Positions 16,076 through 60,121 of a DNA stretch of 64,000 bases are shown piece after piece. Position numbers and translations under genes: made by a program. The stretch covers positions 1 through 64,000 of the forward strand of contig NZ_KB905899.1 in the NCBI RefSeq assembly GCF_000381085.1, written 5' to 3'. The notes under the pieces were generated by a model. That model made no database searches. It had not been told where the DNA came from and saw only the letters and a program-made list of their open reading frames with translations. Numbering within the stretch: the first letter of the stretch is position 1; the number at the start of each line of letters is the position of its first letter. This DNA is from Thiomicrorhabdus arctica DSM 13458. Lineage in GTDB: Bacteria > Pseudomonadota > Gammaproteobacteria > Thiomicrospirales > Thiomicrospiraceae.

Positions 16076-17644
16076 TTACCGTACGCTCTTTGGTGCAATA
16101 AAGTTTTCACATAGGTAGTAATGGTAAGTCACGATAATCGAACCATTTTCGCTAAGAGATTCCTGTTTAAGCTCTGTGCACCTTTCAAAGTGATGTGGCT
16201 GCTGAGTTATTGGTGGAATTTTTTCATAATGAGGTACCACAAGCAACCCATTCATGCCAGCCTTCGGCAAGCCGTACCAAAACTCAAACTGGGTCAGCTT
16301 TGCACTGGTAATGAAAACAGGTTGGGGTCTGACATACCACGTTAGGTGACTAGCGACACTCCAGTTAGAGACAAACAAAGGCAATGGATGCCCGGTTGTT
16401 GAATAGTGTTTTTGCAATTCCAATACGGTTTTGGCGGCAGTTGGCCAACCATAATCCCCTTGAATAGGGTTCTTATAATCTTCCAGAGCAATCCAAGGTT
16501 TATAGAGTAGGCTGTGCGCCACCAAGACGAGAGAGCCTATCAATATTAAATGCAAGTAGATGACAGGTTTAAACCACGTTTTAGTTTGACGAAGCCACAA
16601 CCAGTGGACGATGATTGGAATCAGTAATAACCAGGCTAGTGACACCCAATGTGGCAAACTCTTTTCATAACCTGAGCCCCAGGCAAATAACAAAGTCACA
16701 GGCAGTGAGAATAGTAATAGTAAACGACTGCCTGGGTTTTGATAGCTGGATGGCTTGAGCATCACCCACCAACCTAATAAAAACAGGAGGGGTGTGTAAG
16801 AGGCAAATTGAATGGCTTGGGTTTGCAGTAATCGTTGAATTGACCAGGTGTCACTTTTCGTGCCATGGTTTATCTGATAAATAAAGGATGCCCAGTCATG
16901 TATCGCATTCCAATACAGGATCGGTGTAATCATCAACATGGCGATAACAATGGCAATCCATAACCCTTTTTGTCCGAGCCAACTCCAGCGTTTTTCAACT
17001 ACCATGACTAAAAACAAAGAAAGCACTAAGGTGACCGCGGTATATTTAGACAAAGCCGCGAGACCCACTAAAAATCCCAATGCGATCCAATATTTTAATT
17101 CGTTGGTTTGCAGGAGTTTAATCACTACCAAAATAAGGGAAAGAACGGCTACCATAAGTGGGTTATCTGGCAACATGGCCATGCCCATTAAAGAGAGAAT
17201 CAAGCTGGTATTGAGAATAACCAAGCTGCCAAAGCCCATCCACTGTGCACCTATAGAGTTTAAAGCACTTTCAGTAGGGATATTTAAAGCGTGCTGAGGA
17301 TTTGACCAGGCCTGGTCAGTTGTACGTCTTACAAAAAGTTGCATCGTGATTTGGTAAAGCAGGAAATTCAATAACGCATAGAGTACGATAGGAACGATTC
17401 GAGCACTCCAGTCGTATGGCGCTAACCACATTGGGATGATTTGCAGCCAACCGACCATGGGCGGATGATCAAAATAGCTCCAATCGGGCATTAAACCATA
17501 GAGTGCGTAGTGAGCCTCATCGCCGCCAAGTTCGGCTTGAAATGCTAGGAAAAGATGGAGCAGGCTCATAAAAGCCACCAGTATAAAACTGGCAATTTTA
17601 GGCGTGATAGTCCGAGTTGAAGACTGTATCAATGGCTTTTTCAT
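16076..17644 (-). CDS. glycosyltransferase family 39 / ArnT-like membrane protein
   Basis: 522-residue polytopic glycosyltransferase using a polyprenyl-phosphate sugar donor. The first periplasmic loop has the hallmark GGDEAHY (about 38-44) followed by YFDHPPMVGW. About eleven hydrophobic segments follow, then a periplasmic C-terminal domain. The order manC, this gene, acyltransferase, GT2-GtrA on one strand suggests one glycan pathway. A copy of the ACCAGGCCTGGT palindrome lies inside it (17304-17317), read as Asp-Gln-Ala-Trp-Ser. The acceptor is unknown: protein, lipid A or another lipid are all possible. Confidence 0.88.
   Translation of the reverse strand: MKKPLIQSSTRTITPKIASFILVAFMSLLHLFLAFQAELGGDEAHYALYGLMPDWSYFDHPPMVGWLQIIPMWLAPYDWSARIVPIVLYALLNFLLYQITMQLFVRRTTDQAWSNPQHALNIPTESALNSIGAQWMGFGSLVILNTSLILSLMGMAMLPDNPLMVAVLSLILVVIKLLQTNELKYWIALGFLVGLAALSKYTAVTLVLSLFLVMVVEKRWSWLGQKGLWIAIVIAMLMITPILYWNAIHDWASFIYQINHGTKSDTWSIQRLLQTQAIQFASYTPLLFLLGWWVMLKPSSYQNPGSRLLLLFSLPVTLLFAWGSGYEKSLPHWVSLAWLLLIPIIVHWLWLRQTKTWFKPVIYLHLILIGSLVLVAHSLLYKPWIALEDYKNPIQGDYGWPTAAKTVLELQKHYSTTGHPLPLFVSNWSVASHLTWYVRPQPVFITSAKLTQFEFWYGLPKAGMNGLLVVPHYEKIPPITQQPHHFERCTELKQESLSENGSIIVTYHYYLCENFIAPKSVR
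17304..17317. repeat. iterated palindrome copy 1 (GACCAGGCCTGGTC)
   Basis: Perfect 14-bp palindrome inside the GT39 gene, exact in its 12-bp core. On the coding strand it reads Asp-Gln-Ala-Trp-Ser. It is the first of 11 exact copies in the window; none occurs in the first 17.3 kb. Confidence 0.9.
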
Positions 17645-17650
17645 AAGGGG

Positions 17651-19036
17651 TTAAACTCTGCCGTAATGGTCTTCAAAGCGAATAATGTCATCTTCACCGG
17701 TATATTCGCCGACTTGCGCTTCAATCAGTACTAAATCTAAACGACCTTCATTTGCCAAACGGTGCTTTTCACCAATGGGGATGTAAGTGGATTCATTCGG
17801 ACGAACTAATGCTATTTTTTCACCCACTGTCACGGTGGCCGTACCAGAGACCACCACCCAATGCTCACTACGATGGAGGTGCTTCTGTAAGCTCAGGGTT
17901 TTGCCAGGTTTAACGACGATACGTTTAATCTTATATTTCTCTGCCGACTCCAACACCGTATAGGTACCCCATGGGCGATGCGCGGTGCGATGGATTTGCG
18001 GTAGGTCGCTGCCTTGTTGTTTTAAGGTTTCGACCACTGTTTTAATCTTTTGCCCTGAGCCTTTTGGTGCGATCAATAACGCATCTTCACTGTCTATGAT
18101 CATCAAGTCTTCAAGATCGATTAAAACGATAGTACGTTGACTGCCGATAATCAGGTTATTTTTGGCGTTTAATAAAACGCCTTTTTCGATCTGCGTATTG
18201 CCATTTTCATCTTTAGGAAGCTCTTGATCTAAAGATTCAAAACTACCCAAATCACTCCAGCCGATATCACTCGGAATCACCTTAACAAGCGCACTTTGCT
18301 CCATGACCGCATAATCAATACTGTCTGCTGGGATGGCTTGCATTGCGGCCAGTGGAATTCGTAAAAATTCGCCTTTTTCGGTTTGTGCGTAAGCGTCGAG
18401 ACAAGTTTGATGAATGTCGGAAGCATGCGCGGCTAACTCGGCCAAAAACAGACCTGCTTTAAAGCAGAACATACCACTGTTCCAGTAAAAGTTGCCTTGC
18501 TGAAGATAGGACTCAGCTAAGGCAAGTTCTGGTTTCTCTTTAAAAGACAAAACATCCAAACCATCGGCTTCAATATACCCAAAACCCGTCTCCGGATAGG
18601 TGGGCTTAATACCAAAGGTGACGAGTTGATTTTGTTTCGCAAGGGCTTGAGCTTTAGATACCGCAGCTTCATAAGCGACTTGGTCTTTTATGAGATGGTC
18701 AGAAGGGGTCACAAAAATAATTTCTTCTGGATCTACCGCCATACAGGCAAGTGCAATCGCCGGCGCCGTATTACGTGCAACGGACTCCAATACAAATTGT
18801 GCGTCAAAAACCTCACTAGGCGACTTTTTCAGTGCTTGCATTTGATCAAGCGCTAAAAAATACTGCTCTTGATTGGAGACAATTAAAAACTGGTCGCAGA
18901 AAGGCTGATTGCGCAATACGGTTTTTTGAAACAACGATTGGCCATCAAATAATGGCACAAACTGCTTAGGAAGTAGGGTTCGGCTAATAGGCCATAAACG
19001 TGTGCCAGAACCACCGCAAAGAATTAAGTTAATCAT
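17651..19036 (-). CDS. manC: mannose-1-phosphate guanylyltransferase / mannose-6-phosphate isomerase
   Basis: Bifunctional enzyme of 461 residues making GDP-mannose. The N-terminal nucleotidyltransferase domain has LCGGSGTRLWPISR (about 6-19) and the FVTPSDH and GWSDLGSF motifs. The C-terminal type II isomerase cupin contains RPWGTYTVLE and the metal-binding KHLHRSEHWVVVSG. Length is normal for full two-domain ManC/CpsB. It sits upstream of the GT39, acyltransferase and GT2-GtrA genes, which can consume GDP-mannose through a polyprenyl-phosphate intermediate. Confidence 0.95.
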   Translation of the reverse strand: MINLILCGGSGTRLWPISRTLLPKQFVPLFDGQSLFQKTVLRNQPFCDQFLIVSNQEQYFLALDQMQALKKSPSEVFDAQFVLESVARNTAPAIALACMAVDPEEIIFVTPSDHLIKDQVAYEAAVSKAQALAKQNQLVTFGIKPTYPETGFGYIEADGLDVLSFKEKPELALAESYLQQGNFYWNSGMFCFKAGLFLAELAAHASDIHQTCLDAYAQTEKGEFLRIPLAAMQAIPADSIDYAVMEQSALVKVIPSDIGWSDLGSFESLDQELPKDENGNTQIEKGVLLNAKNNLIIGSQRTIVLIDLEDLMIIDSEDALLIAPKGSGQKIKTVVETLKQQGSDLPQIHRTAHRPWGTYTVLESAEKYKIKRIVVKPGKTLSLQKHLHRSEHWVVVSGTATVTVGEKIALVRPNESTYIPIGEKHRLANEGRLDLVLIEAQVGEYTGEDDIIRFEDHYGRV

Positions 19037-24846: not shown

Positions 24847-24868
24847 AAGTGACCAGGCCTGGTCACTT
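24847..24868. repeat. iterated palindrome copy 2, fully extended 22-bp form
   Basis: The core ACCAGGCCTGGT (24852-24863) is extended on each side to a perfect 22-bp palindrome: AAGTG at the left end and CACTT at the right. It lies between the convergent GT39 and epmB genes, but no T run follows, so it is not a classic terminator. This copy probably shows the longest ancestral form. Confidence 0.9.
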
Positions 24869-26617: not shown

Positions 26618-27601
26618 ATGAATTCAAATTCTAAACGTTCCATGTTAATTAAACGCTCGCAACTGCTTCAACAGTTGCGGGCGTTTTTTTATGCCCGATC
26701 GGTTATTGAGGTCGACACTCCAATGTTGTCTGCCGGGGGTGTTCCGGATGTCCACCTATCGGCCCTGAGTACGCGCGTGCAAGTTCCCGGGGTGCGCGAC
26801 CCTCAACTGTTTTACCTGCCGACGTCACCGGAGTATCCGATGAAGCGATTATTGTGCGAGGGCAGTGGTGATATTTTCTATCTTGGAAAAGTGTTTCGTG
26901 ATGGTGACTTAAGCCCCAGGCATCAAGTCGAATTTACGATGCTCGAATGGTATCGCCTCGGTTTTTCGATGTTTGAATTAATGGATGAAGTCGCCACTTT
27001 AATTAATACATTCCTAAAGCGACCTTTAAATATAGAACGCCTTAGTTATCAGCAAGGCTTTGCAAAATATGCAGGAATTGAGGATATCTTGACGGCTTCG
27101 GCAGAAAGCTGTCAGGCCTGTCTGAAACAGCATGGCGTTGCGGAAATTGTTGGGGTGGCGGCAGAAGATAAAGCTTTGTGGGAGCAGTTGATACTGACTG
27201 AAGTGATTGAGCCACAATTGGGTCTAAAGGAGGGCAAAATTGCGATGACCATCTTGTTTCACTTTCCTGCCAATCAAGCTTCATTGGCACAAATTTCTGT
27301 CGATAACCCTCTGGTTGCTGAGCGTTTTGAACTGTTTGTAAATGGCATGGAGCTGGCAAATGGTTACCATGAATTGATTGAAGCCGACTTATATCAAGAA
27401 CGTTTTAATACCGCTTTAATAGAGCGACAACAATTGGGCTTTAAAAGTATTGCTTTAGATAAGCAGTTATTGACCACGTTAAAAAATCAGCCCTTACCCG
27501 ACTGCAGTGGGGTGGCCTTGGGTGTGGATCGTCTGTTTGCACTACAGCAAGGGTTTGATGATATTGCTTTAGGTATCGCTTTCGGTCTTGAGGACTGTTG
27601 A
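26618..27601 (+). CDS. epmA: EF-P--(R)-beta-lysine ligase EpmA (GenX/PoxA)
   Basis: Class II lysyl-tRNA-synthetase-like enzyme of 327 residues without an anticodon-binding domain. It attaches beta-lysine to Lys34 of EF-P. Motif 2 appears as GKVFRDGDLSPRHQVEFTMLEWYR and motif 3 as GVALGVDRL near the C-terminus. The ATG at 26618 is used; ATG at 26642 is an alternative with eight fewer residues. It lies directly downstream of efp and is likely co-transcribed. Confidence 0.95.
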   Translation: MNSNSKRSMLIKRSQLLQQLRAFFYARSVIEVDTPMLSAGGVPDVHLSALSTRVQVPGVRDPQLFYLPTSPEYPMKRLLCEGSGDIFYLGKVFRDGDLSPRHQVEFTMLEWYRLGFSMFELMDEVATLINTFLKRPLNIERLSYQQGFAKYAGIEDILTASAESCQACLKQHGVAEIVGVAAEDKALWEQLILTEVIEPQLGLKEGKIAMTILFHFPANQASLAQISVDNPLVAERFELFVNGMELANGYHELIEADLYQERFNTALIERQQLGFKSIALDKQLLTTLKNQPLPDCSGVALGVDRLFALQQGFDDIALGIAFGLEDC

Positions 27602-27650: not shown

Positions 27651-27664
27651 GACCAGGCCTGTTC
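27651..27664. repeat. iterated palindrome, near copy (one mismatch)
   Basis: GACCAGGCCTGTTC differs from the exact palindrome by one base. It lies 50 bases after epmA, in the 211-bp gap before sspA, and shows the motif decaying or varying between genes. Confidence 0.7.
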
Positions 27665-36080: not shown

Positions 36081-36124
36081 AAAAAAGCCGTAAACAACCA
36101 GGCCTGGTTGTTTACGGCTTTTTT
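36081..36124 (+). terminator. 44-bp perfectly palindromic terminator with iterated palindrome at its apex
   Basis: Bases 36081-36102 and 36103-36124 are perfect reverse complements. The outer part is AAAAAAGCCGTAAACA paired with TGTTTACGGCTTTTTT, a typical Rho-independent terminator stem with a T tail. The centre is exactly ACCAGGCCTGGT (36097-36108). The hairpin ends the ppiC transcript, and the A tract allows use from both sides. Confidence 0.9.
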
Positions 36125-46024: not shown

Positions 46025-46182
46025 TTTAGGAGTATCGTACTTATTTGTCTGCGTTAACAAACTTATACCCTGAATATTTGCCATAATAGCCACTTCTTTA
46101 CATGTTCTCAAGCAACGGTTCTACACCGTCTGTAAAATCTCTATAAACCATTTTTGAACCATTTCCGTAAGAAGCGAGTTTG

Positions 46183-49035
46183 ATGAAAACCATCCATATC
46201 ACCGCCAACAGTCGTTTAAGCGCGACGCTTAAACAGCAATCCATACAGCAGCAAAGTCATTCGGTGATTCAAACCCCGGAGATTATGACGTTTGGCCAAT
46301 GGTGGACGCTATGGCAAGAAGGGTGTTTGCTGCGTGGCGAATTGTCGTTTGATGAACTGCCGAGTAAAGTCTTAAGTGGTTTTGAGGCGCAGTGGTTGTG
46401 GGAGCAGGTCTTACAAGAGGAGCTAGAGTCTCGTGAAACAGCTTTGAGTCATTTGGCCAACTCAGGAGAACCGGATCAAGAAACGGAAGGTAACAATGCC
46501 TCCCATAACATTCAAAGCATTGCGTTGCTCAACGTCTCAAGTACGGCCAAACAACTTTACCAGGCCTGGTCACTTGCACAATCCTGGTTTCCAGAAGATT
46601 GGTTAGACACGCCTTTTCAATCAAATGAGACTCAGTTATTCAAAAGCTGTCAGGCTCGTTATCTTAAAAAGTTAAAAGCCAACAATTGGCTGGATGATGT
46701 CTTAGCACAACAACAGCGTTTGGTGTGGTTGAAAATGGGCAAAGGTAAACTGCCAGATTCCTTTTTCTTACATGGTTTTGATGAAATAACTCCTCAAATA
46801 AAACAATGGCAAACGATTGTAGAATCGCTAGAGTGTCAGGTGGCTGAAGCAGACATAACGTCTCATGCCAATCTAACCAATCAATCTCTGCATAGCGCGT
46901 TAGACGCGCAAGATGAAGTACAGCAAGTGGCCTTATGGTGTGTTCAACAATGGCAAGCCCAAGCCCTCGCTTTATCAAAACCCGCCCATGAAATTAAAAT
47001 TGGCGTGGTGTCGCCCAATCTAGCCGATTATAAAGTGGCCTTAAGCCAGTGTTTGGATGAGCAACTGAGCTTGCAAGGGTTGCAAGAACTCAGCAGTAGG
47101 CGGACGACACCGCCGTTTTATAACTTGTCTTTAGGGGAGTCATTACTGACGTTGCCACTGGTACAAAATGCCTGGTTGAGTTTACAACTATTTTTACGCC
47201 CCAAAAAGCCTTGTACCTATGCCGACTGGAGTCAGTGGTTAATCTCGCCTTATAGTCAGGGCAGTTTTGTGCAGCGCCAACAAGCCGATGCCGGTTTTAG
47301 ACGGTTACAGTGGTCTAATTTTGCTTGGCCGAGTCTGTTGGAGACCGAGTCTGCCAAAGCTTTACCCAAAGTCTTATTACAAAGTTTACGCCAACAAGCG
47401 GTACTCGAACTGCCTGCTAAATTGAGCCTAACGGAGTTCATTCAAGCCACCTGGGATGTTTTACAGTTGATAAGCTGGCCTGGTAGCAGAACCTTAAACA
47501 GTGACGAATACCAACAAAAAACGGCGTTTGAAAGCGCTGTCACCCATTTTTCAATGGTCACTGAAATGGTTGGCAAGCAGTCGGTCTCTGCCTGGTTATC
47601 GCTCTTTAGACGTTTTCTGTCAGAGCAACTACACCAATCGCAAAGTAAAGGGCTGCAACCCATTCAGATTATGGGAATGCTCGAAGCCGGTGGTCAACAA
47701 TTTGATGCCTTGTGGGTCATGGGGTTAACCGATGAAGCCTGGCCGAGAATGCCCAATCCCAATCCTTTTTTACCGATGGCCTTACAAAGAGAGCTGCGTT
47801 CGCCGCGTTGCGATGCAAAACGTGAATTAGATTACGCCTTACAAGTGACTGAACGTTTAGCCGAATGTGCTCCGGCGCTGGTTTGGAGTTATGCGCAACA
47901 TCAAGGCGATGCCGAGTTATTAGCCAGTCCGCTCATTCAAATTCGTCGAGATGCATTCCAGGTCATGCAAGAGATAGAGTTACCAGCTTACACTCCGCTC
48001 AATTACCGTTCACTAGCCGAACAGGTCTTTTTATTACGCGATACCGAACAGCCAATTGATTGGGTGCTTGATACCAAAGGTCCACAAGTAGCCGAAGGCT
48101 CAAAAGCCCCTGGCGGTACCGGTATTTTACAGGCGCAAAGTCAGTGTCCATTAATGGCCTTTATGGATTATCGTTTAGGCGGAAAATATGGCTTGCAGAG
48201 CGTCGAAGAAGGCTTGCAAAACACCAATCAGGGCACCTTGGTGCATGCGGTTTTGGAGCATTTTTGGCAAGAGACCAAAACCCAGAATGCGATGTTACTG
48301 TTGAGCGATGATGAATTGGCAGAACGTCTGCAAAATAACATTACGCTCAGTTTTGAAGAGCTTCAAGGCACCATTGAAAACGCCTATTTAGAACTGGAAC
48401 AAGCCCGAATTCTAGAGTTGTGTTTGCAGTGGCTAGAGCTTGAGAAAAGTCGATCAAGTTTTGAAGTGGTCGCCACCGAGGAGAAACATCAAATCACCCT
48501 GGCAGGCATTGAGTTTACCGTGATTATCGATCGAGTCGATCAGGTCGCGGGCGAAAAGGTCATTATTGATTATAAGACCGGTAAAGCCAGTATCAATGAC
48601 CTGTTAAAAACCCCCACCAAAGCGCCACAGTTGGCTGTGTATTTGCATGCCGTAAGTGATGACGTTTCTGGCATTGGTTATGGACTGTTGCATTCGGACG
48701 ATGGCGTCAAAATTAGCGCCATAGCCGCAGAGGATGATGTGTTACTCAAAGCCCGCTCGATTCAGGTGTTTGCCAAGATGGCTGAAAAGGAAAACCATGA
48801 ATATTATGAAACCACCTGGGTGCATTTTTTAGGCCATCTAAGACAACAGGTTTCCGACCTGGCCAGTGATATTCAACTGGGCTGTGCCGAGATGGCCTTT
48901 GATAAAGAGACCGATATTCAATATGCCAATTGTAAGTTGGCATTGCGTTTGCCAGAGATGAAGCAACAGCAACGTTTCACCGATGAAGATGACAATAACC
49001 CTAATAACGACTATGACTTTCAAGGGGGGGCTTAA
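46183..49035 (+). CDS. AddB-like PD-(D/E)XK nuclease, probable DNA repair protein
   Basis: 950-residue protein related to AddB and to the group annotated as probable DNA repair proteins (I recall TIGR03623). The N-terminal two-thirds are a helicase-like fold without an obvious Walker A. The C-terminal PD-(D/E)XK nuclease domain has TLVHAVLEHFW (about 687) and VIIDYKTGKAS (about 796). The four-Cys iron-sulfur cluster of classical AddB is not evident. ATG at 46183 is preferred over the TTG immediately before it. It is followed 2 bases later by the AddA-like helicase. One palindrome copy lies inside, read Tyr-Gln-Ala-Trp-Ser. Confidence 0.85.
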   Translation: MKTIHITANSRLSATLKQQSIQQQSHSVIQTPEIMTFGQWWTLWQEGCLLRGELSFDELPSKVLSGFEAQWLWEQVLQEELESRETALSHLANSGEPDQETEGNNASHNIQSIALLNVSSTAKQLYQAWSLAQSWFPEDWLDTPFQSNETQLFKSCQARYLKKLKANNWLDDVLAQQQRLVWLKMGKGKLPDSFFLHGFDEITPQIKQWQTIVESLECQVAEADITSHANLTNQSLHSALDAQDEVQQVALWCVQQWQAQALALSKPAHEIKIGVVSPNLADYKVALSQCLDEQLSLQGLQELSSRRTTPPFYNLSLGESLLTLPLVQNAWLSLQLFLRPKKPCTYADWSQWLISPYSQGSFVQRQQADAGFRRLQWSNFAWPSLLETESAKALPKVLLQSLRQQAVLELPAKLSLTEFIQATWDVLQLISWPGSRTLNSDEYQQKTAFESAVTHFSMVTEMVGKQSVSAWLSLFRRFLSEQLHQSQSKGLQPIQIMGMLEAGGQQFDALWVMGLTDEAWPRMPNPNPFLPMALQRELRSPRCDAKRELDYALQVTERLAECAPALVWSYAQHQGDAELLASPLIQIRRDAFQVMQEIELPAYTPLNYRSLAEQVFLLRDTEQPIDWVLDTKGPQVAEGSKAPGGTGILQAQSQCPLMAFMDYRLGGKYGLQSVEEGLQNTNQGTLVHAVLEHFWQETKTQNAMLLLSDDELAERLQNNITLSFEELQGTIENAYLELEQARILELCLQWLELEKSRSSFEVVATEEKHQITLAGIEFTVIIDRVDQVAGEKVIIDYKTGKASINDLLKTPTKAPQLAVYLHAVSDDVSGIGYGLLHSDDGVKISAIAAEDDVLLKARSIQVFAKMAEKENHEYYETTWVHFLGHLRQQVSDLASDIQLGCAEMAFDKETDIQYANCKLALRLPEMKQQQRFTDEDDNNPNNDYDFQGGA
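46559..46570. repeat. iterated palindrome inside the AddB-like gene
   Basis: Exact ACCAGGCCTGGT followed by CACTT, so the right flank also matches the extended form at 24847. Read as Tyr-Gln-Ala-Trp-Ser-Leu in the gene. Confidence 0.9.
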
Positions 49036-49037: not shown

Positions 49038-52000
49038 ATGTCAAACATCCCGACAGAAACGACCAACCTAGATTTGTTCGCCGAGCAAGAACCATCTAAT
49101 GGCACAAATTACGATTCAGCTTACGATCAAACGACCCCAGTTTTTCAAACTGAAGATCGCCCCGGCGTGGCCGAACTGTTCGGCGTTGAAGAAGACAAAA
49201 AGTTAATTGATGGGCTTGCCCGATTTGAAGCCATTAATCCGTTTAGCTCTTTTATTGTGCAAGCACCGGCTGGCTCGGGTAAAACGGCTCTGTTAACGCA
49301 GCGATTTTTAGCTCTATTGTCGCAAGTCGACCAACCCGAACAGATCGTGGCGATGACCTTTACCAAAAAAGCCGCCGCTGAGATGCGTGACCGTATTATG
49401 GGCGCGTTAAAAATGGGATTGTTGACCGAGCTGCCTGAAAACGCTACCTTAAACGACTTTAATACCTGGCAATTGGCGAAAAGTGCCTTGCAACAAAATA
49501 ACCACCAGGCCTGGTCACTGCTGCAAAACCCCAACCGTCTGCGCATCAAAACCATTGATGGTCTGAACAGCTATCTGGTCGGCCAAATGCCGTTGTTATC
49601 CAAGATGGGGGCGCCGTCGCAGATTTCGCATAAGGTGGATTCATCCTATAAAGAGGCGGTGCACTTAACCTTAAAAACACCTGAGTTAGAAGAAGCCGTG
49701 GCGCGTCTCTTAGGTTTGGTGAACGGTCGCTTTAACCGTGCTGAAAGTCTGTTGATGAATATGCTGAAAAAACGTGACCAATGGATGGGCAATCTATTAC
49801 GCCTCAACGGAGATGATTCCCGAGCGAATCTAGAATCCGCTTTAGAGACGATTGTGTTAGACGAACTTAAGCAACAAGTTGCTATGTTAAGTCATGTTCG
49901 ACCGCTGTTGGAGGAAGCCTGTCAGGTGGCGGAATACGCGGTGCAAAAGGATCAGCCAGAGTTAGATATCTTGTGCGGCGCTTGGCCTTTGAGCGATTCG
50001 CTATCTGACATTCAGGCTTGGCAGCGTTTGGCGGATTGGTTAATCACCAAAGACTCAAAAGGTATTCGCAAGACCGTCACCAAAAACAATGGTTTCCCCG
50101 CAGGCAAAGGCGAAGCCAAAGAGCGTAAAGACCAGTTTCTAAATGTCTTGGCAGGGTTACGAGAAGGCAATCAGTCGAAAGACGTTTTGGATGCATTAGC
50201 GATTTTAAAGGAATTGCCAGAACCGCATTACAGCGATGATCAGTGGTTGGATCTACAGTGGTTAATCCAGTTATTAAGAGTCTCCTCGGCCTATTTGAAA
50301 GTGGTCTTTCAATCCAGCGGACAAGCCGATTTTATCGAGATCGCCCAAGCGGCCAGTCAGGCATTAGGTCATGAATTAGAACCGACCGACTTGGCGCAAC
50401 AGTTAGATTATCAAGTCAAACATTTGCTGGTCGATGAGTTTCAAGATACCAGTAGTGAGCAGTTTTCATTGATACGTAAATTGATTGCAGGTTGGCAGCC
50501 TGGAGATGGTCGAACCTTGTTTATCGTGGGTGATCCAATGCAATCGATTTACCGTTTCCGTGAAGCCGAGGTCGGTAACTTTCTCAAGGTTTGGCAAGGT
50601 AAGGTCGGTTCAGTCAATTTAACGCCATTGAACCTCAAGGTGAATTTCCGTTCTAGCCAAGGTGTGGTCGATTGGGTCAATCAAAACTTTAGCAAAGTCC
50701 TGCCGAAAGCCAATAATATCGAAAAGGGCGCGGTGAGTTACAGTGATTCGGTCGCCTTTTCAACCGATACAATGCCGGCGGTGCACAGCTTTTGGGCGGT
50801 CAATCGTTCGCATGAAGAAGAGGCCGAAGAGATCGTGGCGCTTATTCAACAACGCCTCTCGGAACTGAATGAAGGCGACGGCAAAAGCATCGCTCTGTTA
50901 GGCCGTTCTCGTTCCAGTTTAATGGGCATTGCCCGTCTATTGAAACAAGCCGGCATTGGTTTTAGAGCGGTTGATCTGGAAGCCTTGAACGAACGTCAAG
51001 AAGTTCAGGATAGTTTGGCGTTAAGCCGTGCTTTATTGCATCTGTCTGACCGTGCGGCGTGGATTGCGTTACTGCGTTCGCCTTTGGTTGGGCTATCGTT
51101 GAATGACCTGTTTGCGGTCATGGGCAACTGGCCTTATCAATCTGTCTGGTCTTGTTTAACCTATCCAATCTCAGCCTTAGACAAAGGGTCGCATCCAAAA
51201 TCAGCAAACGACCAGGCCTGGTCACTTCAACAAATCCTGGCCGAAAAACAGCTTTCAGAGGAAGGTTTGCAGCGGTTAGTGCATGTTATTCCCATCTTGC
51301 AGCAGACCTTATCACGTTTAGGCAGTCTGCCTTTCTCAACCTTGGTCAGAGAGTGCTGGATTCAACTGGATGGCCCGCAGACGGTGGAAACACACTTGGC
51401 ATTGGAGAATGTCGAGGTGTTTTGTCATACCTTGGCGGAGTTCGATGGTGAAGTGTTGGACTTTCAGCAACTCGAAACCATGATGGATGCGTTGTTTGCC
51501 CGAGCCGACAGCTCACCAGAGAGTCAGCGTATCGAGTTGATGACCATGCACAAATCCAAAGGGTTGGAGTTTGACAGCGTCATCCTACCTGGTCTGGGTC
51601 GCAAGCCACGGGGCGATGATACCGAACTGGTTTCTTGGTTCCAGTTTATGGCGGATGAGACAGAGTCCGAGATATTAGGCGAGTCTGCTGAAAAATTGGT
51701 GATTGCGCCGATTACCCAAAAAGGCCAAGGCGTTTCAAAATTAAGTCTGTTGCTGAAACGCTTTGAGTTGGAAAAACAGAATTATGAACTTGGTCGTCTA
51801 TTGTATGTCGCCGCCACTCGAGCCAAACAAAAACTCTATCTATTTGGGCAAATCAACGTCAAAGAACCCGAAGACATTGACGTGGTGATTAATCCGGTGA
51901 GAGGCAGTATGCTGGAGGCGTTGTGGCCGTGCGTGAATTTAACCTTTACAAAATTACTGCACGAACATGAGTTTGTGGAGTTAGATCAAAGCCAACAGAA

Positions 52001-52772
52001 ATCTCCTTGGCCGAAAGTCAGTCGCTTACCGCTGTTAAGAGCCGGTTTTAGCACACTGTTTCAGCCAGAGGCTGATCTGGTTAAGAGTGAGGACGAAATC
52101 GCTCGTACGAGCGCCACTGCAAGTATCAGTACCGATATCGATACAGGCACCGCCAAAACAGCCAATGTAACGGAAGCTACAAGCGATAAAACGTCACCAG
52201 AAGTCGACACTCTGTTTGCCAGCCGACAAGCATTGCTTAATACCTCGGTGGGTAATCTCGTGCATGCGGTATTAGAGCAGATGGTCGACGAAGGCATTGA
52301 AGTTTGGGATGCAACACGCCTAACCCAACGTCTGCCTTTCTACAAACAGTGGTTAGGCCAGCAAGGCTTAAAAGAGCGTGAGTTAGACGAAGCTTTACAC
52401 CGTACCGAACACTCTTTGGCCAACGCCATCGGCAATCCGCAGTTGCGTTGGGCGCTCGGCAGTTCATTTGTCGAATCACAAACCGAACAACCGCTGACGG
52501 CTTTGGAAGAGGGTGGGCTCGTCAGCAACCATATTATTGATAGAACGTTTGTCGATGAAACGGGTTTGCGCTGGATTGTCGACTACAAAACCAGTATTCA
52601 TCAAGGTAAGGTCGATGATAAGAAAGGCTTGGAACGGTTTATCCAACAGCAAGTGGAGCATTATCAGCCACAATTAGAACGTTACGGTCGTTTATTTGCA
52701 GAACTGGAAGATCGTCCACAAAAATGGGTGCTCTATTTTAGCTATATCGACCAATGGGTCGAGTTGAATTGA
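49038..52772 (+). CDS. AddA-like UvrD/Rep helicase-nuclease
   Basis: 1244-residue superfamily 1A helicase with a C-terminal nuclease, related to AddA/RecB. Walker A is APAGSGKT (76-83) with TFTKKAAAEMRDRI as motif Ia. Motif II is LLVDEFQDTS (about 462), followed by VGDPMQSIYRFR and the late helicase motif LLYVAATRAKQKLYL. An acidic Thr/Ala-rich linker (about 1020-1055) leads to the nuclease domain with GNLVHAVLEQMV and RWIVDYKTS (about 1177). With the AddB-like partner it should process double-strand DNA ends for recombination. Two palindrome copies lie inside. Confidence 0.9.
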   Translation: MSNIPTETTNLDLFAEQEPSNGTNYDSAYDQTTPVFQTEDRPGVAELFGVEEDKKLIDGLARFEAINPFSSFIVQAPAGSGKTALLTQRFLALLSQVDQPEQIVAMTFTKKAAAEMRDRIMGALKMGLLTELPENATLNDFNTWQLAKSALQQNNHQAWSLLQNPNRLRIKTIDGLNSYLVGQMPLLSKMGAPSQISHKVDSSYKEAVHLTLKTPELEEAVARLLGLVNGRFNRAESLLMNMLKKRDQWMGNLLRLNGDDSRANLESALETIVLDELKQQVAMLSHVRPLLEEACQVAEYAVQKDQPELDILCGAWPLSDSLSDIQAWQRLADWLITKDSKGIRKTVTKNNGFPAGKGEAKERKDQFLNVLAGLREGNQSKDVLDALAILKELPEPHYSDDQWLDLQWLIQLLRVSSAYLKVVFQSSGQADFIEIAQAASQALGHELEPTDLAQQLDYQVKHLLVDEFQDTSSEQFSLIRKLIAGWQPGDGRTLFIVGDPMQSIYRFREAEVGNFLKVWQGKVGSVNLTPLNLKVNFRSSQGVVDWVNQNFSKVLPKANNIEKGAVSYSDSVAFSTDTMPAVHSFWAVNRSHEEEAEEIVALIQQRLSELNEGDGKSIALLGRSRSSLMGIARLLKQAGIGFRAVDLEALNERQEVQDSLALSRALLHLSDRAAWIALLRSPLVGLSLNDLFAVMGNWPYQSVWSCLTYPISALDKGSHPKSANDQAWSLQQILAEKQLSEEGLQRLVHVIPILQQTLSRLGSLPFSTLVRECWIQLDGPQTVETHLALENVEVFCHTLAEFDGEVLDFQQLETMMDALFARADSSPESQRIELMTMHKSKGLEFDSVILPGLGRKPRGDDTELVSWFQFMADETESEILGESAEKLVIAPITQKGQGVSKLSLLLKRFELEKQNYELGRLLYVAATRAKQKLYLFGQINVKEPEDIDVVINPVRGSMLEALWPCVNLTFTKLLHEHEFVELDQSQQKSPWPKVSRLPLLRAGFSTLFQPEADLVKSEDEIARTSATASISTDIDTGTAKTANVTEATSDKTSPEVDTLFASRQALLNTSVGNLVHAVLEQMVDEGIEVWDATRLTQRLPFYKQWLGQQGLKERELDEALHRTEHSLANAIGNPQLRWALGSSFVESQTEQPLTALEEGGLVSNHIIDRTFVDETGLRWIVDYKTSIHQGKVDDKKGLERFIQQQVEHYQPQLERYGRLFAELEDRPQKWVLYFSYIDQWVELN
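49504..49515. repeat. iterated palindrome inside the AddA-like gene (first)
   Basis: Exact ACCAGGCCTGGT followed by CACT; read as His-Gln-Ala-Trp-Ser-Leu. Confidence 0.9.
51210..51223. repeat. iterated palindrome inside the AddA-like gene (second)
   Basis: Exact GACCAGGCCTGGTC followed by ACTT; read as Asp-Gln-Ala-Trp-Ser-Leu, in the same frame as the other three coding copies. Confidence 0.9.
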
Positions 52773-52880: not shown

Positions 52881-53564
52881 ATGGAAAAGACACAACAACA
52901 GATTTTAAGACACCACGGTGGAGACGGAGAGCATGCCCGTCAAATGATTACCCAAACGTATGAGCGTCGTCACGATACCGACTTTTGGGAGTTCTGGAAC
53001 GAACAGATGGCCCCGGTGATTAGTCATGGTGACTGTCTGCTGGATTTAGGCGCAGGCACCGGACAATTTGTCAGCGATTTAGCGCTGCGTTATCCGCATA
53101 ATTCCGCTTTGGGGATTGATGCCGCAGACTATATGTTAGTCGCACAAGAAGCCCTGCCTGAAAATGGTCGCATGGTCAAAGGCGATTTGAACGAGCCACA
53201 AGTCAATATCGAAGACGGCCGCGTGGGTGTCGCCATGGCGAGTATGCTGGTGCATGAACTACCACAGCCGATTAATCTGTTTAAAGCAGTCTATAAGTGG
53301 CTAAAACCAGGCGGGCGTTTCTGTATCATTGATTTGGTCAGACGACCATTGGCCGAGTATCTAGAACATAAATTCCCTGATGGGCAGTTGTTCAAAACGG
53401 ATGTTGAACGAGATGAGATGGAAGATGTGTTTGAGCATTTTCTAGAACACAATCGCTATCATGCCGATGACATACTCTATATGTTGAAAGGGGTGGGTTT
53501 TACGGTCATTGAGAATACGCCGCAACGTGATGGGCGTTTTGTTCGGATTGTGGTTGAGAAGTAG
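52881..53564 (+). CDS. class I SAM-dependent methyltransferase
   Basis: 227-residue methyltransferase with a Rossmann fold. Motif I is LLDLGAGTGQFV (about 54-65), with the acidic residue at the end of strand 2 in ALGIDAADYM and motif IV-like MASMLVHELPQP. KPGGRFCIIDLVR is the usual post-motif strand. The substrate is unknown. GAGGAAATT lies before the ATG. It follows the AddA-like gene by 108 bases and may or may not share its transcript. Confidence 0.88.
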   Translation: MEKTQQQILRHHGGDGEHARQMITQTYERRHDTDFWEFWNEQMAPVISHGDCLLDLGAGTGQFVSDLALRYPHNSALGIDAADYMLVAQEALPENGRMVKGDLNEPQVNIEDGRVGVAMASMLVHELPQPINLFKAVYKWLKPGGRFCIIDLVRRPLAEYLEHKFPDGQLFKTDVERDEMEDVFEHFLEHNRYHADDILYMLKGVGFTVIENTPQRDGRFVRIVVEK

Positions 53565-53582: not shown

Positions 53583-53594
53583 ACCAGGCCTGGT
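53583..53594. repeat. iterated palindrome after the methyltransferase gene
   Basis: Exact ACCAGGCCTGGT 19 bases after the methyltransferase stop codon, preceded by a GGGTTT short repeat. Right flank is TGTTT. Confidence 0.9.
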
Positions 53595-54283: not shown

Positions 54284-54934
54284 TTCCAGGCCTTGTAAGT
54301 TTATTAATCTGATTTCTGATTAGGTTGAGAAGCCTTTTTATTTTCGTCGTTCACTAGTCTTTTTCCTATTCGGCTTCCCGTCACTTTATTTGCTTGTCCA
54401 AATAAAATAACCAAACAAAAGACACCCTGCTGACGCCCTCTATTTCACTAAGCTTGTCCGCTGACATTCCCTAAACTCGCTTCGCTCAGACACAGGGAAT
54501 GTTTAAACGCGTCCTTCACTAAGTTCAATGACGATTGCTTACAAAAGGGGAGGTCTCCACGTGAGTTTGTCTATTCTGATTTAGGTCGTTGTAGTGCTTT
54601 TGGATTTGACCAGGCCTGGTCAATTTAAATTTAGAGTTTATCTGAAAACTTAAACTTCACACCGAAGTCCCCCCTTTGAAAGCAATCGTGCGATTCCCTT
54701 AACGAAGTGAACGGTTAAAAATCCCAGGTGTCTGAGCGAAGCGAGTTCTGGGATTTCAGTGAATGAGTTTAAGGAATGCCGATTGATTGAGCGGGGTGCC
54801 CTTTTGTGGTGACTATTTTGGGCACGCAAAATAGTCACGTGAAGCCTTTAAGGCAATAACTTTAGAAAGCAGGTGCTCAGAAAGGCTTCTCAACAGCCAT
54901 TAGAAGCAATTTTGAATAACTTCAAAAGAATCCA
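54284..54934. repeat. repeat unit 1 of the alternating-orientation array
   Basis: About 650 bp. It starts at a degenerate palindrome (TCCAGGCCTTGT, 54285-54296). A first arm contains CGGCTTCCCGTCACTTTATT and ACACAGGGAATGTTTAAACG. The exact palindrome TTGACCAGGCCTGGTCAA (54606-54623) sits in the centre. The second arm is a diverged inverted version of the first: both share CTCGCTTCGCTCAGACAC in opposite orientation. No credible gene lies inside; ORFs within it are repeat-derived. Confidence 0.85.
54609..54620. repeat. iterated palindrome at the centre of repeat unit 1
   Basis: Exact core, extended to an 18-bp perfect palindrome (54606-54623). It lies at the point where the two inverted arms meet. 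Confidence 0.9.
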
Positions 54935-54946
54935 ACCAGGCCTGGT
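54935..54946. repeat. iterated palindrome at the unit 1/unit 2 junction
   Basis: Exact ACCAGGCCTGGT followed by AAGTTTATTAAT, the same following bases as at the start of unit 1. Confidence 0.9.
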
Positions 54947-55608
54947 AAGTTTATTAATTTGATTTATGGTGTTGTTGAGAAGCCTGTTTATCTTCATAGT
55001 TCGTCATTATTTTTCTTATTCGGCTTCCCGTCACTTTATTTGCTTGTCCAAATAAAGTAACCAAACAAAAGACACCCTGCTGACGCCCTCTATTTCACTA
55101 AGCTTGTCCGCTGACATTCCCTAAACTCGCTGTGCTCAAACATAGGGAATGTTTAAACGCGTCCTTCGCTAAGTTCAATGACGATTGCTTACAAAAGGGT
55201 AGGTCTCCACGTGAGTTTGTTTATTGTTGTTTGGGTCTTCTAGTGCTTTTGTATTTGCCCAGGCCTGGTCACTTTTAGTTTTAAGTTTATCTGAATCATC
55301 AAATCCCACGCCAAATTCCCCTTTGAAAGCAATCGAGCAATTCCCTTAACGAAGTGAACGGTTAAAAATCCCAGGTGTCTGAGTACCCCAAGGGCATTTG
55401 CTTCGCGTGCACGAGCGAGTTCTGGGATTTGAGTGAATGAGTTTAGGGAATGCCGATTGATTGAGCGGGGTGCCCTTTTGTGGTTACTATTTTGGGCACG
55501 CAAAATAGTCACGTGAAGCCTTTAAGGGAATAACTTTAGAAAGCAGGTGCTCAGAAAGGCTTCTCAACAGCCATCAGAACCAATTTCGAATAACTTCAAA
55601 AGAATCCA

Positions 55609-55620
55609 ACCAGGCCTGGT
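55609..55620. repeat. iterated palindrome closing the array
   Basis: Exact ACCAGGCCTGGT preceded by AAAAGAATCCA, as at the end of unit 1. It marks the right boundary of the array. Confidence 0.9.
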
Positions 55621-55686
55621 AAGCTTATTTTGAACTAAATCGTTTCGGCCTAGATTCATATAGTTTTTACACTGACTCCGATCTTC

Positions 55687-56553: not shown

Positions 56554-57303
56554 TTAATCTTTACTGTTGAGTTCAGCTTCTATTACTTTGCGTTCATTTA
56601 TCCACTTCTGCTGTTCAAAATCGACATTCATGCAGCTATAACAATGTTCTTTAAAGATTCCTACTTTAGCTAAAAGCCAGTGGATTTTACAACCTAAGCA
56701 AAAACCAAATACCGCTTCTAGCCACATAAAAGCAAAACAAACACCCACGAGTAATGGAATAAAATTAGGCATCCAATTTGTGGTGGTGGGTAATAATTCT
56801 TTAGAAAATAAAGTATTAACAGCTACTGCCACCGTGTCGGGATGAAAAAAAGTTAAGCACGATAGAATTAACGCGGCGCCAATGGCCCAAGCAAAACGTT
56901 TTGGTTTTAGTGGATCCCATCTTGGACGGATATTTCGCGTCAAAAAGGTGGCGATATGAATCGTTGGTGAAAGATACGCCGTTCTAACAAACATACCGAC
57001 AATCATTTCAAATAAGCCATAAAACAATACAAACGTTGGAATCGTGTAATCAAAAGGCGTTTTAAAAGCCTGAACATTAAATATAACTCTAAAACTGTCT
57101 GTCATTTCAAATGTTTCTTCCGAAAACGTATTTGGTGTTACCGTCCAGGTAGGGGCAAGAACGGTGGTGAAGAGTATGATCACCATATAGATGGGGATTA
57201 ACAGCATTAACCCCGCGCGCAATTGAACTGCATATTTATTGATAAATATGATGTCTTCTGTCTTATCTTGAAACCAAAGGTTTTTAAAATGATATTTAAG
57301 CAT
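56554..57303 (-). CDS. DUF4395 family membrane protein
   Basis: 249-residue polytopic membrane protein with about five hydrophobic segments. The central region FYGLFEMIVGMFVRTAYLSP and the CLGCKIHWLLAK near the C-terminus (CxxC) are characteristic of DUF4395, a family often found with sulfur-relay or thiosulfate-handling genes. A second Cys pair (CYSC) follows. It converges on the TetR gene. Function is unknown; a redox or sulfur-linked role is only a guess from the Cys motifs. Confidence 0.75.
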   Translation of the reverse strand: MLKYHFKNLWFQDKTEDIIFINKYAVQLRAGLMLLIPIYMVIILFTTVLAPTWTVTPNTFSEETFEMTDSFRVIFNVQAFKTPFDYTIPTFVLFYGLFEMIVGMFVRTAYLSPTIHIATFLTRNIRPRWDPLKPKRFAWAIGAALILSCLTFFHPDTVAVAVNTLFSKELLPTTTNWMPNFIPLLVGVCFAFMWLEAVFGFCLGCKIHWLLAKVGIFKEHCYSCMNVDFEQQKWINERKVIEAELNSKD

Positions 57304-57477
57304 TTTTCTTTCAATCCATATTGATTCATGTCGTTTGAGTATACAAGGTTAACATTTATTATATATGTGTAAAGTCAAAATGGTGTTAAAGAATGTGGTC
57401 GACTGTGAATGAAGTCTATGAAGAGCGAATTATTCAGTTTGTTTTTAAATAAACACCATGCAGGCAATTTTTAAATT

Positions 57478-57572
57478 TAACCGATGCTGATGCCCTCCAT
57501 TTTCCTCAGTTTGTCTGCTGACCTACTCTAAACTCCCGTATCGATCAGATACAGGGAAGGTTTAAACGCGAA
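57478..57572. repeat. decayed third copy of the repeat arm
   Basis: The stretch from CTGATGCCCTCCATTTTCCT to AGGTTTAAACGCG aligns with the middle of the arm at 54430-54510 with scattered changes, showing an older copy about 2 kb away. It lies in the 440-bp gap 57304-57744, which otherwise shows nothing recognisable. Confidence 0.7.
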
Positions 57573-57744
57573 ATTTTTTTAGGCACTAGGACCGTATTCT
57601 ATTAGGTATTGAATAATGATATTTTTGTCATTACAAAGAATGGGTAACTTCTCTGCAAAGTAAAGTCTGCTGAGTGTAAAATTGATAATAGTGGGTTGGT
57701 TTTAAGTCTCTTGTTGTATCAAAATCATAGGTTGTGTCGTTAAA

Positions 57745-59121: not shown

Positions 59122-59141
59122 TAAAAGAGTGAGAAGGCATT

Positions 59142-60056
59142 ATGGAATCTAATTTTGAACAACCGACTTACCGGCCAAAAATTAAGCAAACTCCTCTTCA
59201 TGAGGCGCAACCGGTGCAAGCTTTACCAGAGAAATCCATTAGACTTGATTTAGATGATGACAAAAATAGTGGGGTCTCACTCTGGTTATGGGCCTTAGGA
59301 CTGGGGGTGCTAAGCATTTTATCGTTTTCAGTCTTTCATGCCATACAAACGATTGACTCTTATTTTAATACCTACCCAATACTGTCCAGTTTCTTAGGAT
59401 TAGGGTTAGGGGCATTTATCTTGGCAATTGCGTTGTTGATATACAAAGAAGTTAAAGGCTATTTGGATGTCAGTCAATTCGTGGATTCTAAAGTTGACTT
59501 AAAGGCGCTTGAAACCTTAGGTGATCGACACTCCACGCTAAACAAACTTCAAAACCACGCCTCACTCGTATCAAAATCCAGCTACGCTTCTCGTTGTTTT
59601 AGACAGTTCGAATCCGCCATTAATTCAGATTTAAGTAACCATGAAATTATTGGTTTATATCAATCGAAAGTGGCAGAACCTATTTTAAAAAAAGCAGAGG
59701 AGGTGTTAAAGAAAGAGTCTTTTGTGAGCGGAGGCTTGGCTTTTATAAGTCCCAATACCTTAATTCAAACTTTATTGTTTGCTTGGATAAGTGTCAGGAC
59801 ACTTAAACGTATTGCGAGGGTGTTTGGTTTGAGACCAGGGATTACTGGTAACTGGAAGCTTATTAGAGTGGCTGCTGAAAATATGGCCGCGCAAAGCTTT
59901 TTTGATCTAGCCACAGATGAAATAACCAATCAAATTGGCAGTTCTTTAGCGGCTAAATTTATGGAAAACTCTGCAGAAGCCGTTGCCGCTGGGGCACTTA
60001 ATATCCGTCTCGGAAAAGCATTAATTCAGCTGTTAAACGAAGCCAAACATGGGTGA
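59142..60056 (+). CDS. ycjF: YcjF/TIGR01620-family membrane protein (DUF697)
   Basis: 304-residue inner-membrane protein. A polar N-terminus is followed by two transmembrane helices (about 46-66 and 84-106). The C-terminal DUF697-like domain includes FVSGGLAFISPNTLIQ and RIARVFGLRPGITGNWKL. GAGAAGG lies just before the ATG. Paired with ycjX, as in many gammaproteobacteria; thought to take part in envelope stress responses, but the mechanism is unclear. Confidence 0.9.
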   Translation: MESNFEQPTYRPKIKQTPLHEAQPVQALPEKSIRLDLDDDKNSGVSLWLWALGLGVLSILSFSVFHAIQTIDSYFNTYPILSSFLGLGLGAFILAIALLIYKEVKGYLDVSQFVDSKVDLKALETLGDRHSTLNKLQNHASLVSKSSYASRCFRQFESAINSDLSNHEIIGLYQSKVAEPILKKAEEVLKKESFVSGGLAFISPNTLIQTLLFAWISVRTLKRIARVFGLRPGITGNWKLIRVAAENMAAQSFFDLATDEITNQIGSSLAAKFMENSAEAVAAGALNIRLGKALIQLLNEAKHG

Positions 60057-60109
60057 TTTAATGAGAAGTAATCCGGTGTATGCCTTTTAAATACTTCCAC
60101 ATAAAAGCA

Positions 60110-60121
60110 ACCAGGCCTGGT
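60110..60121. repeat. iterated palindrome between ycjF and dps
   Basis: Exact ACCAGGCCTGGT 53 bases after ycjF. A separate hairpin follows at 60195-60217 (TAACGTG with CACGTTA), whose loop contains CCTGGTTGC, a half-site of the palindrome. Confidence 0.9.

What the first reader, a model, noticed from the sequence alone, without database searches (positions are those of the whole stretch)
17304..60121. A 12-bp palindrome, ACCAGGCCTGGT, iterated at least 11 times
Exact copies at 17305, 24852, 36097, 46559, 49504, 51211, 53583, 54609, 54935, 55609 and 60110, plus near copies at 27652, 54285 and 55258. A given 12-mer is expected about 0.004 times in 64 kb. Copies are spread over genes, gaps, a terminator and a repeat array, which fits a selected or self-spreading genome-wide mark such as cyanobacterial HIP1, DNA-uptake sequences or a nucleoid-protein site. 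The core contains two CCWGG methylation-type sites around AGGCCT. None lies in the first 17.3 kb.
Basis: partly seen in the sequence, partly recalled or inferred. Interest (0 to 1): 0.8.

Follow-up and report, generated by a model that had tools for sequence, protein, structure and literature searches.

The report
Palindromic DNA-uptake-like signal in Thiomicrorhabdus
Hundreds of identical 12-letter DNA signals are scattered through the genomes of a family of sulfur-oxidising bacteria, in species-specific 'dialects', and they look like the self-recognition tags that a few bacteria use to choose which DNA to take up.

Summary
In detail: 11 exact copies of ACCAGGCCTGGT at the stated places and 333 in the 2.55-Mb Thiomicrorhabdus genome (reversed control 0). 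Copies sit mainly between genes, at gene ends. The 12-mer is the core of a longer motif with A/T tracts outside it; in one related genus four A/T tracts per side, phased at about 11 bp, reach some 40 bp outward, inside genes too. Of 58 family genomes, 26 carry this motif at 200 copies or more, and 10 carry other motifs of the same design in its place (for example ACCGGCCGGT, 1025 copies, or CCARCCTGGYAG+ATTTT); two further motifs were seen in sampled DNA. The dialects cluster on an AddA tree. In 20 genomes no motif was recognised.

Best reading: an uptake-signal (DUS/USS-like) system with dialects, the palindrome being two overlapping uptake units back to back. That would be a third bacterial family with such signals; a 2025 paper names only Neisseriaceae and Pasteurellaceae. 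Uptake was not tested, no ComP receptor was found, and ComEC occurs with and without the motif. HIP1-type methylation is disfavoured (no C5 or N4/N6-beta methylase found in the host genome), and so is Chi. A DNA-wrapping or gyrase-type site remains possible.

The parts
17305..17316 (.). exact 12-mer, inside ORF 16076-17644 (-)
24852..24863 (.). exact 12-mer in a convergent gene spacer (ORF ends at 24815 and 24903); flanks extend it to a perfect 22-bp palindrome
27652..27663 (.). one-mismatch copy ACCAGGCCTGTT, about 50 bp after the 3' end of ORF 26618-27601
36097..36108 (.). exact 12-mer at the tip of an inverted repeat extended by 16 pairs and ending in a T-run (terminator-like hairpin, -30.5 kcal/mol, z -8.9)
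46559..46570 (.). exact 12-mer inside the gene 46180-49035 (TIGR03623 'probable DNA repair protein', AddB-like)
49504..49515 (.). exact 12-mer inside the AddA/RecB-like gene 49038-52772, read as HQAW
51211..51222 (.). exact 12-mer inside the AddA/RecB-like gene, read as DQAW; the same alignment column has the motif in G007, G030 and G067
53583..53594 (.). exact 12-mer just after the 3' end of ORF 52881-53564
54285..54296 (.). two-mismatch copy TCCAGGCCTTGT at the edge of the duplicated ~650-bp unit
54609..54620 (.). exact 12-mer within the first copy of the duplicated unit
54935..54946 (.). exact 12-mer at the junction of the two copies of the duplicated unit
55258..55269 (.). one-mismatch copy CCCAGGCCTGGT within the second copy (counterpart of 54609)
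55609..55620 (.). exact 12-mer at the end of the second copy (counterpart of 54935)
60110..60121 (.). exact 12-mer in a convergent spacer (between ORF ends 60056 and 60241)

Best explanation
The 12-mer is the core of an uptake signal, like the DUS of Neisseriaceae and the USS of Pasteurellaceae. During natural transformation a surface DNA receptor, probably a minor pilin, would prefer fragments that carry it. The unit read is one-sided: about (G)GCCTGGTCAnTTT, a GC-rich core followed by an A/T tract about one helical turn from the centre. The palindrome is two such units overlapping back to back, so a fragment can load in either direction. Copies arise by point mutation and are kept because fragments carrying good copies are taken up and recombined more often; they collect where sequence is free, at gene ends and terminators. 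When receptor specificity shifts, the genome-wide signal drifts to a new dialect; when specificity is lost, the signal decays. Shown here: the motif, its flanks, counts, gene positions, dialects and their clustering on a gene tree. Inferred: receptor, uptake, drive.
For: (1) 333 copies, reversed control 0; in 464 kb 62 exact, 29 one-mismatch and 31 two-mismatch copies against 0, 0.7 and 17 in three second-order Markov simulations; G019 34/8, G036 21/3, G024 38/7 exact/one-mismatch. (2) Motifs of the same design replace each other: of 58 family genomes 26 have at least 200 CCAGGCCTGG, 1 has ACCGGCCGGT (1025), 3 have CCARCCTGGYAG (334-383), 6 have AACAGGCCKG (242-687); G082 and G058 have two more in sampled DNA. 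(3) On an AddA tree of 30 of the genomes the 4 labels need 6 changes against a shuffled mean of 14.0, 0 of 200 shuffles as low; dialect-phylogeny congruence is reported for DUS (PMC3630211, passages). (4) A/T tract beside the core in the A, B, C, D, E and F consensus. In G033 tracts are phased at 10.75-11 bp, in coding sites (power 28.9, null maximum 1.4) and intergenic sites (32.4, null maximum 2.06). USS is described as a 9-nt core plus two AT-rich regions at helical spacing (PMC12616744, passage). (5) 44 of 62 sites intergenic against 8.1 expected; convergent 20, divergent 4; 10 of 62 have at least 5 further hairpin pairs against 1.55 with shuffled partners. (6) Overlapping dyad pairs of DUS have a precedent, 1294 in S. 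muelleri (PMC3630211, passage). (7) In sampled asymmetric dialects 38 sites lie with and 34 against the G-rich strand (sum by hand; p 0.72). (8) ComEC in 54 of 58.
Against: No uptake experiment. PF16732 (ComP_DUS) over cut-off in 0 of 58 genomes, though none of the 14 control genomes rang either, so that search had no positive control. ComEC is present with and without the motif and in E. coli among the controls; G004 (410 dialect-D copies, fragmented) showed none. Phasing is not general: weak in the window's own genome (intergenic 2.73 against a null maximum of 1.17, at 12.25 bp; coding 174 of 300 nulls as high), none in G019, and in G021 and G058 strongest at the 12.25-12.5-bp end of the scanned range. 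G035 has fewer exact (6) than one-mismatch (19) copies. Whole-genome forward/reverse counts of the C motif are uneven (G074 187/147, G076 188/154, G078 200/183; pooled p 0.006), unexplained. Depletion in foreign DNA was not tested. Copy numbers are below the 1,465 USS cores and 1,892 DUS cited for H. influenzae and N. meningitidis (PMC7811141, passage). Two-sided tracts reaching about 40 bp exceed the described USS.
Confidence: 0.64

Rival explanations
1. Chromosome-wide docking site of a DNA-wrapping or bending protein (a nucleoid protein, or strong DNA gyrase sites) that acts on positive supercoils at converging gene ends. The palindrome is the centre and the phased tracts are the wrapped arms.
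For: Two-sided ~11-bp phasing in G033 resembles the 130-bp gyrase motif, a 36-bp centre with two 47-bp G/C-periodic arms (PMC12393610, passages). Convergent 20 against divergent 4. Gyrase and topo IV cleavage specificities are reported to differ between species (PMC12324340, abstract).
Against: Gyrase is near-universal (recalled), yet 20 of 58 family genomes show none of the four counted patterns at 200 copies and no other motif recognised (E and F were not counted there). Dialects C, E and F have a tract on one side in the consensus. A strict 12-mer core is unlike a degenerate gyrase motif. Of 4 dialect-A genomes profiled only G033 has clear long arms.
Confidence: 0.21
2. HIP1-like palindrome created or kept by a solitary DNA methyltransferase and methyl-directed repair.
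For: Palindromic, highly iterated, replaced by variant palindromes in relatives, as described for HIP1 (PMC4390886, passages). 15 of the 26 dialect-A genomes have at least one PF00145 or PF01555 match.
Against: No PF00145 and no PF01555 match in G000; both absent in 11 of the 26 dialect-A genomes and in G024, G018, G021, G026, G074 and G058 of other dialects. Several dialects are asymmetric. PF02086 (D12) was not searched.
Confidence: 0.05
3. Intrinsic terminators or another RNA hairpin at gene ends.
For: 10 of 62 sites have at least 5 further pairs; the 36097 site folds as a -30.5 kcal/mol hairpin with a U-tract.
Against: 52 of 62 sites lack the extension; 18 of 62 lie in ORFs, as do 29 of 38 dialect-B sites in G024 and 15 of 21 in G036; the asymmetric dialects lack the dyad (by sequence, not folded). 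Termination looks like a secondary use, as reported for DUS (PMC3630211, passage).
Confidence: 0.04
4. Chi-like recombination hotspot for the AddAB-type enzyme.
For: GC-rich, over-represented, species-variable; an AddAB-type pair is in the window. The C motif is slightly uneven between strands genome-wide.
Against: A palindrome has no polarity; in sampled asymmetric dialects 38 sites lie with and 34 against the G-rich strand; enriched between genes.
Confidence: 0.03
5. Spread by a mobile repeat (MITE/REP-like).
For: Five window copies belong to a duplicated ~650-bp element, partial copies of which occur at three more places in the 464-kb sample.
Against: 60 of 62 sites survive masking of 24-mers present more than twice; addA sites at alignment columns 249, 524 and 976 align without gaps in most readable rows.
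Confidence: 0.03

Closest known systems
Pasteurellaceae uptake signal sequence (USS, e.g. AAGTGCGGT plus A/T tracts)
   Same: core followed by A/T tracts; many copies per genome; variants between lineages
   Different: Core unrelated; main dialect palindromic; in G033 phased tracts on both sides out to about 40 bp; fewer copies; no uptake data
Neisseriaceae DNA uptake sequence (DUS) dialects with the ComP receptor
   Same: 10-12-bp core, dialects that follow phylogeny, association with terminators, overlapping dyad pairs known in Simonsiella
   Different: Different core; no ComP_DUS hit over cut-off in 58 genomes; A/T tracts outside the core
Cyanobacterial HIP1 and variant HIPs
   Same: Highly iterated palindromes with replacement variants
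   Different: No C5 or N4/N6-beta methylase match in this genome; asymmetric sister dialects; A/T flanks; intergenic preference
DNA gyrase sites (130-bp motif, Mu SGS)
   Same: Two-sided helical phasing (G033), gene-end location
   Different: Strict core that differs between relatives; not found in some close relatives; one-sided dialects

Membership tests
DUS/USS uptake signal | short motif in hundreds of copies, exact copies exceeding near copies | tested here: met
   exception G035, 6 exact against 19 one-mismatch
DUS/USS uptake signal | spread over the whole chromosome without ori/ter or strand bias | tested here: inconclusive
   G033: 25 windows of 20 kb, mean 2.36, variance 1.82, no ori/ter trend by eye; G000 spacing CV 0.98; sampled orientation 38 against 34; but pooled forward/reverse counts of the C motif are uneven, p 0.006
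DUS/USS uptake signal | helically phased A/T tracts beside the core (USS) | tested here: inconclusive
   Very strong in G033, first tract in G036, further tracts in G021 and G058 (best period 12.25-12.5 bp); weak in the window's own genome, none in G019
DUS/USS uptake signal | dialects that follow phylogeny | tested here: met
   6 changes against 14.0 shuffled, 30 of 58 genomes, one gene; D is not a single clade and two long branches meet (G078, G067)
DUS/USS uptake signal | competence machinery | tested here: inconclusive
   ComEC (PF03772) in 54 of 58, with and without motif
Neisseriaceae DUS-ComP | ComP receptor | tested here: not met
   PF16732 over cut-off in 0 of 58; no control genome rang
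DUS/USS uptake signal | receptor of the PpdA/ComN or another minor-pilin type | not tested
DUS/USS uptake signal | preferential uptake of motif-bearing DNA | not testable with these tools
   needs an uptake assay
HIP1 | cognate DNA methyltransferase in every HIP genome | tested here: not met
   no PF00145 or PF01555 match in G000 and 10 more of the 26 dialect-A genomes; PF02086 not searched
Chi | polar, orientation-biased site | tested here: not met
   palindrome; 38 against 34 in sampled asymmetric dialects; slight genome-wide strand excess of the C motif unexplained
Gyrase strong sites | central G-segment with two phased arms, present wherever gyrase is | tested here: inconclusive
   arms in G033; patterns A-D below 200 copies in 22 of 58 genomes, 2 of which (G082, G058) have another motif

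The most novel reading that the evidence does not exclude
This family of sulfur oxidisers evolved, independently of Neisseriaceae and Pasteurellaceae, a signal read in part as a bent or wrapped DNA shape up to about 100 bp long: a dyad core plus helically phased A/T arms, strong enough in one genus to be imposed on coding sequence, with at least six dialects. Either a dimeric uptake receptor reads it (self-DNA recognition by shape), or a DNA-wrapping protein whose specificity diversifies between species.
Probability: 0.4. Interest if true: 0.9.

Novelty: new variant of a known kind. Interest (0 to 1): 0.8.

Why it matters
[quoted passage not shown] A third family would show that the trait evolved again, and it would offer a natural series of dialect switches, apparent losses, and palindromic against one-sided motifs within one genus, in which to find the receptor and test why such signals arise: uptake-driven spread or selection for conspecific DNA. 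The G033 form would test the idea that DNA shape is part of the signal. If it is not uptake, the same data point to an unknown chromosome-wide DNA-wrapping system.

Tried and rejected
HIP1/methylation: PF00145 and PF01555 searched; no match in the host genome, though 15 of 26 dialect-A genomes have one or the other. ComP: PF16732 0 of 58 over cut-off; one match below it in G020. A scan of the sampled DNA for prepilin motifs gave no convincing pilin in the own genome; four G033 hits look by eye like a type II secretion pseudopilin cluster, not checked with a family search. Mobile repeat: disfavoured by repeat masking and by codon alignment at addA columns 249, 524 and 976 (G067 has a gap beside column 524); column 927 (window 51211) lies in a stretch of variable length, where insertion cannot be judged. 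Chi: see the rival row. Domain-limited sites such as matS, parS or SlmA sites (recalled) do not fit the spread in G033 (by eye). One genome-contig scan gave the genus name. The 16-mer TGACCAGGCCTGGTCA occurs in 3 viral contigs; not followed. Literature: no paper held has the 12-mer, none has 'uptake sequence' with 'Thiomicrospira', none has 'overrepresented', 'palindrom' and 'Methylotenera' (a wrong first guess at the organism). Searches were seen as listings. In one search the open frame taken for several loci was not AddA; those rows show as gaps and were not used, and redid the extraction by tblastn. One search was a failed script, redone.

Limits: gene calls are simple longest-ORF calls of at least 80 aa. 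'No motif recognised' means fewer than 200 copies of patterns A-D and, in 8 of those 20 genomes, a 20-100 kb sample without a clear motif; G027 has a weak GCCTGTTCGA excess (7 sites with GCCTGTTCG in 80 kb). Dialects E and F were counted only in samples (60 and 100 kb). The tree uses one gene and 30 genomes.


Full report
What was checked. The 12-mer ACCAGGCCTGGT is present at all 11 stated positions; up to two mismatches give 20 matches in the window against 1.35 +/- 1.27 in 100 dinucleotide shuffles, none of which reached 20. The whole genome (6 contigs, 2,552,883 bases) holds 333 copies and none of the reversed control. The AddA/RecB-like protein of the window matches contigs titled Thiomicrorhabdus at 88, 63 and 59%, and contig G018:C11 has the same length as one of these records, so the window is taken to be from Thiomicrorhabdus or a near relative. 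NCBI files that genus under Piscirickettsiaceae; the GTDB family name Thiomicrospiraceae is recalled. None in the first 17.3 kb has P = 0.10 and needs no explanation.

Anatomy. In 464 kb of this genome (window plus 400 kb next to it) there are 62 exact, 29 one-mismatch and 31 two-mismatch copies, where three second-order Markov simulations average 0, 0.7 and 17. The motif is longer than 12 bp: both flanks prefer CA-n-TTT outward (C 0.57, A 0.66, T 0.66, 0.73, 0.55). By simple ORF of 62 lie between genes against 8.1 expected; of 43 classed sites 20 are in convergent, 19 in tandem and 4 in divergent spacers, though convergent and divergent spacers have nearly the same total length. Ten of 62 have at least five further hairpin pairs, 1.55 expected with shuffled partners, and the copy at 36097 is the tip of a terminator-like hairpin. 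In addA the sites are read as HQAW, DQAW or PGLV; at columns 249, 524 and 976 relatives without the site have other residues or codons, mostly without a gap in the rows that could be read, while column 927 lies in a stretch of variable length.

Relatives. In the first set of 58 genomes the 12-mer is patchy within the genus (0 to 718) and abundant in three of the five other genera of the family sampled there; in all 21 genomes of other families of the class it occurs 0 or 1 times (one of these has 3 of the reversed control). Sampling of relatives without it showed different iterated motifs of similar design. Counts over 58 family genomes: CCAGGCCTGG at least 200 copies in 26 (9 of 28 in genus g1, 1 of 1 in g3, 9 of 9 in g5, 7 of 11 in g6; none of 4 in g2, 1 in g4, 4 in g28). 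ACCGGCCGGT 1025 in G024 and at most 15 elsewhere. CCARCCTGGYAG 334, 342 and 383 in G074, G076 and G078, at most 2 elsewhere, reversed control 0-1 in those three. AACAGGCCKG 242-687 in six genomes (palindromic instances count on both strands; eight dialect-A genomes of g1 have 48-102 of this near variant). In samples only: CCACCCCTGGCGATTTT in G082 (60 kb), and AAAAAGTCGGGGACCCCC in G058, 13 copies in 100 kb identical over 18 bp with unlike flanks apart from a second A/T tract. That leaves 20 of 58 genomes with no recognised motif; of these G020, G025 and G003 were sampled over 100 kb, G027 over 80 kb, G031 over 40 kb, and G028, G012 and G066 over 20 kb; E and F were not counted genome-wide in any of them.

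Dialects and phylogeny. On an AddA tree of 30 genomes the four labels A, C, D and none need 6 changes; shuffled labels need 14.0 on average and none of 200 was as low. D is not one clade there (G002 stands apart), and the placing of G078 beside G067 joins two long branches. Dialect A is found in four genera and is probably old in the family; B, C, D and E look like replacements (inference).

Shape. In G033 (25 windows of 20 kb) the A/T content outside the 12-mer oscillates with maxima at about +5, +16, +26 and +37 bp and minima between, period 10.75-11 bp. This holds for 68 half-sites in coding DNA (power 28.9; 300 class-matched random sets reach at most 1.40) and for 50 between genes (32.4; at most 2.06). 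Elsewhere it is less clear: G036 has a strong first tract (coding power 6.05, null maximum 3.10); G058 has a second tract about one turn beyond its A5 and G021 has tracts at +2 to +4 and about +16, both with the best period at 12.25-12.5 bp, the end of the scanned range; G024 is marginal in coding sites (1.89 against 1.78) and negative between genes; G019 is negative; in the window's own genome the first tract is clear but beyond it phasing is weak between genes (2.73 against 1.17, at 12.25 bp) and absent in coding sites. So in at least one genus the DNA itself, not only the 12 letters, is under constraint, at the expense of the encoded protein.

Interpretation. A core with A/T tracts beside it, exact copies in excess (not in G035), hundreds per genome, dialects that cluster on a tree, and gene-end and terminator positions together match DNA uptake signals: the USS of Pasteurellaceae for the tracts and the DUS of Neisseriaceae for the dialects (PMC12616744, PMC7811141, PMC3630211; passages). 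One half of the palindrome, GCCTGGTCAnTTT, resembles the one-sided dialects (CCTGGCAGATTTT, CCTGGCGATTTT, GGCCTGTTGAGTTTTT), so the palindrome is best read as two overlapping units; overlapping dyad pairs of DUS are reported for Simonsiella. Single halves are rare in this genome: of 75 CCTGGTCA in the 464 kb, 62 are preceded by AGG. ComEC is present in 54 of 58 genomes but does not separate bearers from non-bearers, and the ComP_DUS family was not found, so a different receptor is needed. That step, and uptake itself, are inferred.

Rivals. The host genome has no PF00145 or PF01555 match, nor have 10 other dialect-A genomes; 15 of the 26 have at least one. This fails the feature that Elhai reports for every HIP genome (PMC4390886, passage); PF02086 was not searched. 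Chi is disfavoured by palindromy and by 38 against 34 orientation in samples, although genome-wide the C motif is uneven between strands (187/147, 188/154, 200/183; pooled p 0.006), which I cannot explain. A gyrase-like wrapping site is the strongest rival because of the two-sided phasing in G033 and the convergent-gene preference; against it stand the one-sided dialects, the strict core and its lack in close relatives.

Novelty. No paper in the library holds the 12-mer or couples 'uptake sequence' with 'Thiomicrospira', with broader terms, listed 15 of 189 papers, none about this family by title. Subscription papers are not covered.

Noticed in passing
window 54286-55629: A ~650-bp intergenic element in direct duplication (blocks 79-97% identical) with motif copies at its ends and middle; partial copies at about 57.5, 214 and 378 kb of the same contig and on several contigs of G007.
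   Followed up: partly
G058 (genus g28), loci L153, L154, L165-L167: An 18-bp motif AAAAAGTCGGGGACCCCC, 13 identical copies in 100 kb, with another A/T tract about one turn upstream: a candidate uptake signal unlike the others in core; not counted genome-wide.
   Followed up: partly
G074, G076 and G078, whole genomes: The C-dialect motif is more frequent on the forward strand of the assemblies (187/147, 188/154, 200/183; pooled p 0.006); cause unknown.
   Followed up: no
G020 L091-L095, G033 L121-L125, G019 L111-L115: Sets of 12-mers repeated 37-98 times within 100 kb, probably long tandem arrays; masked only.
   Followed up: no
window 161-1798 and the following ORFs to 12365: Gene run whose first product resembles the XrtA/PEP-CTERM system ATPase (E 1.6e-60, 204.8 bits, below the curated cut-off of 324.5); no exact motif copy in it.
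   Followed up: no
G070: Nine PF00145 matches (some of them fragments) and five PF01555 matches in one small genome of genus g2, more than any other of the 58.
   Followed up: no
addA of G067, alignment columns 927, 950 and 976: Three motif copies within about 125 bp of one gene, each read as HQAW.
   Followed up: no
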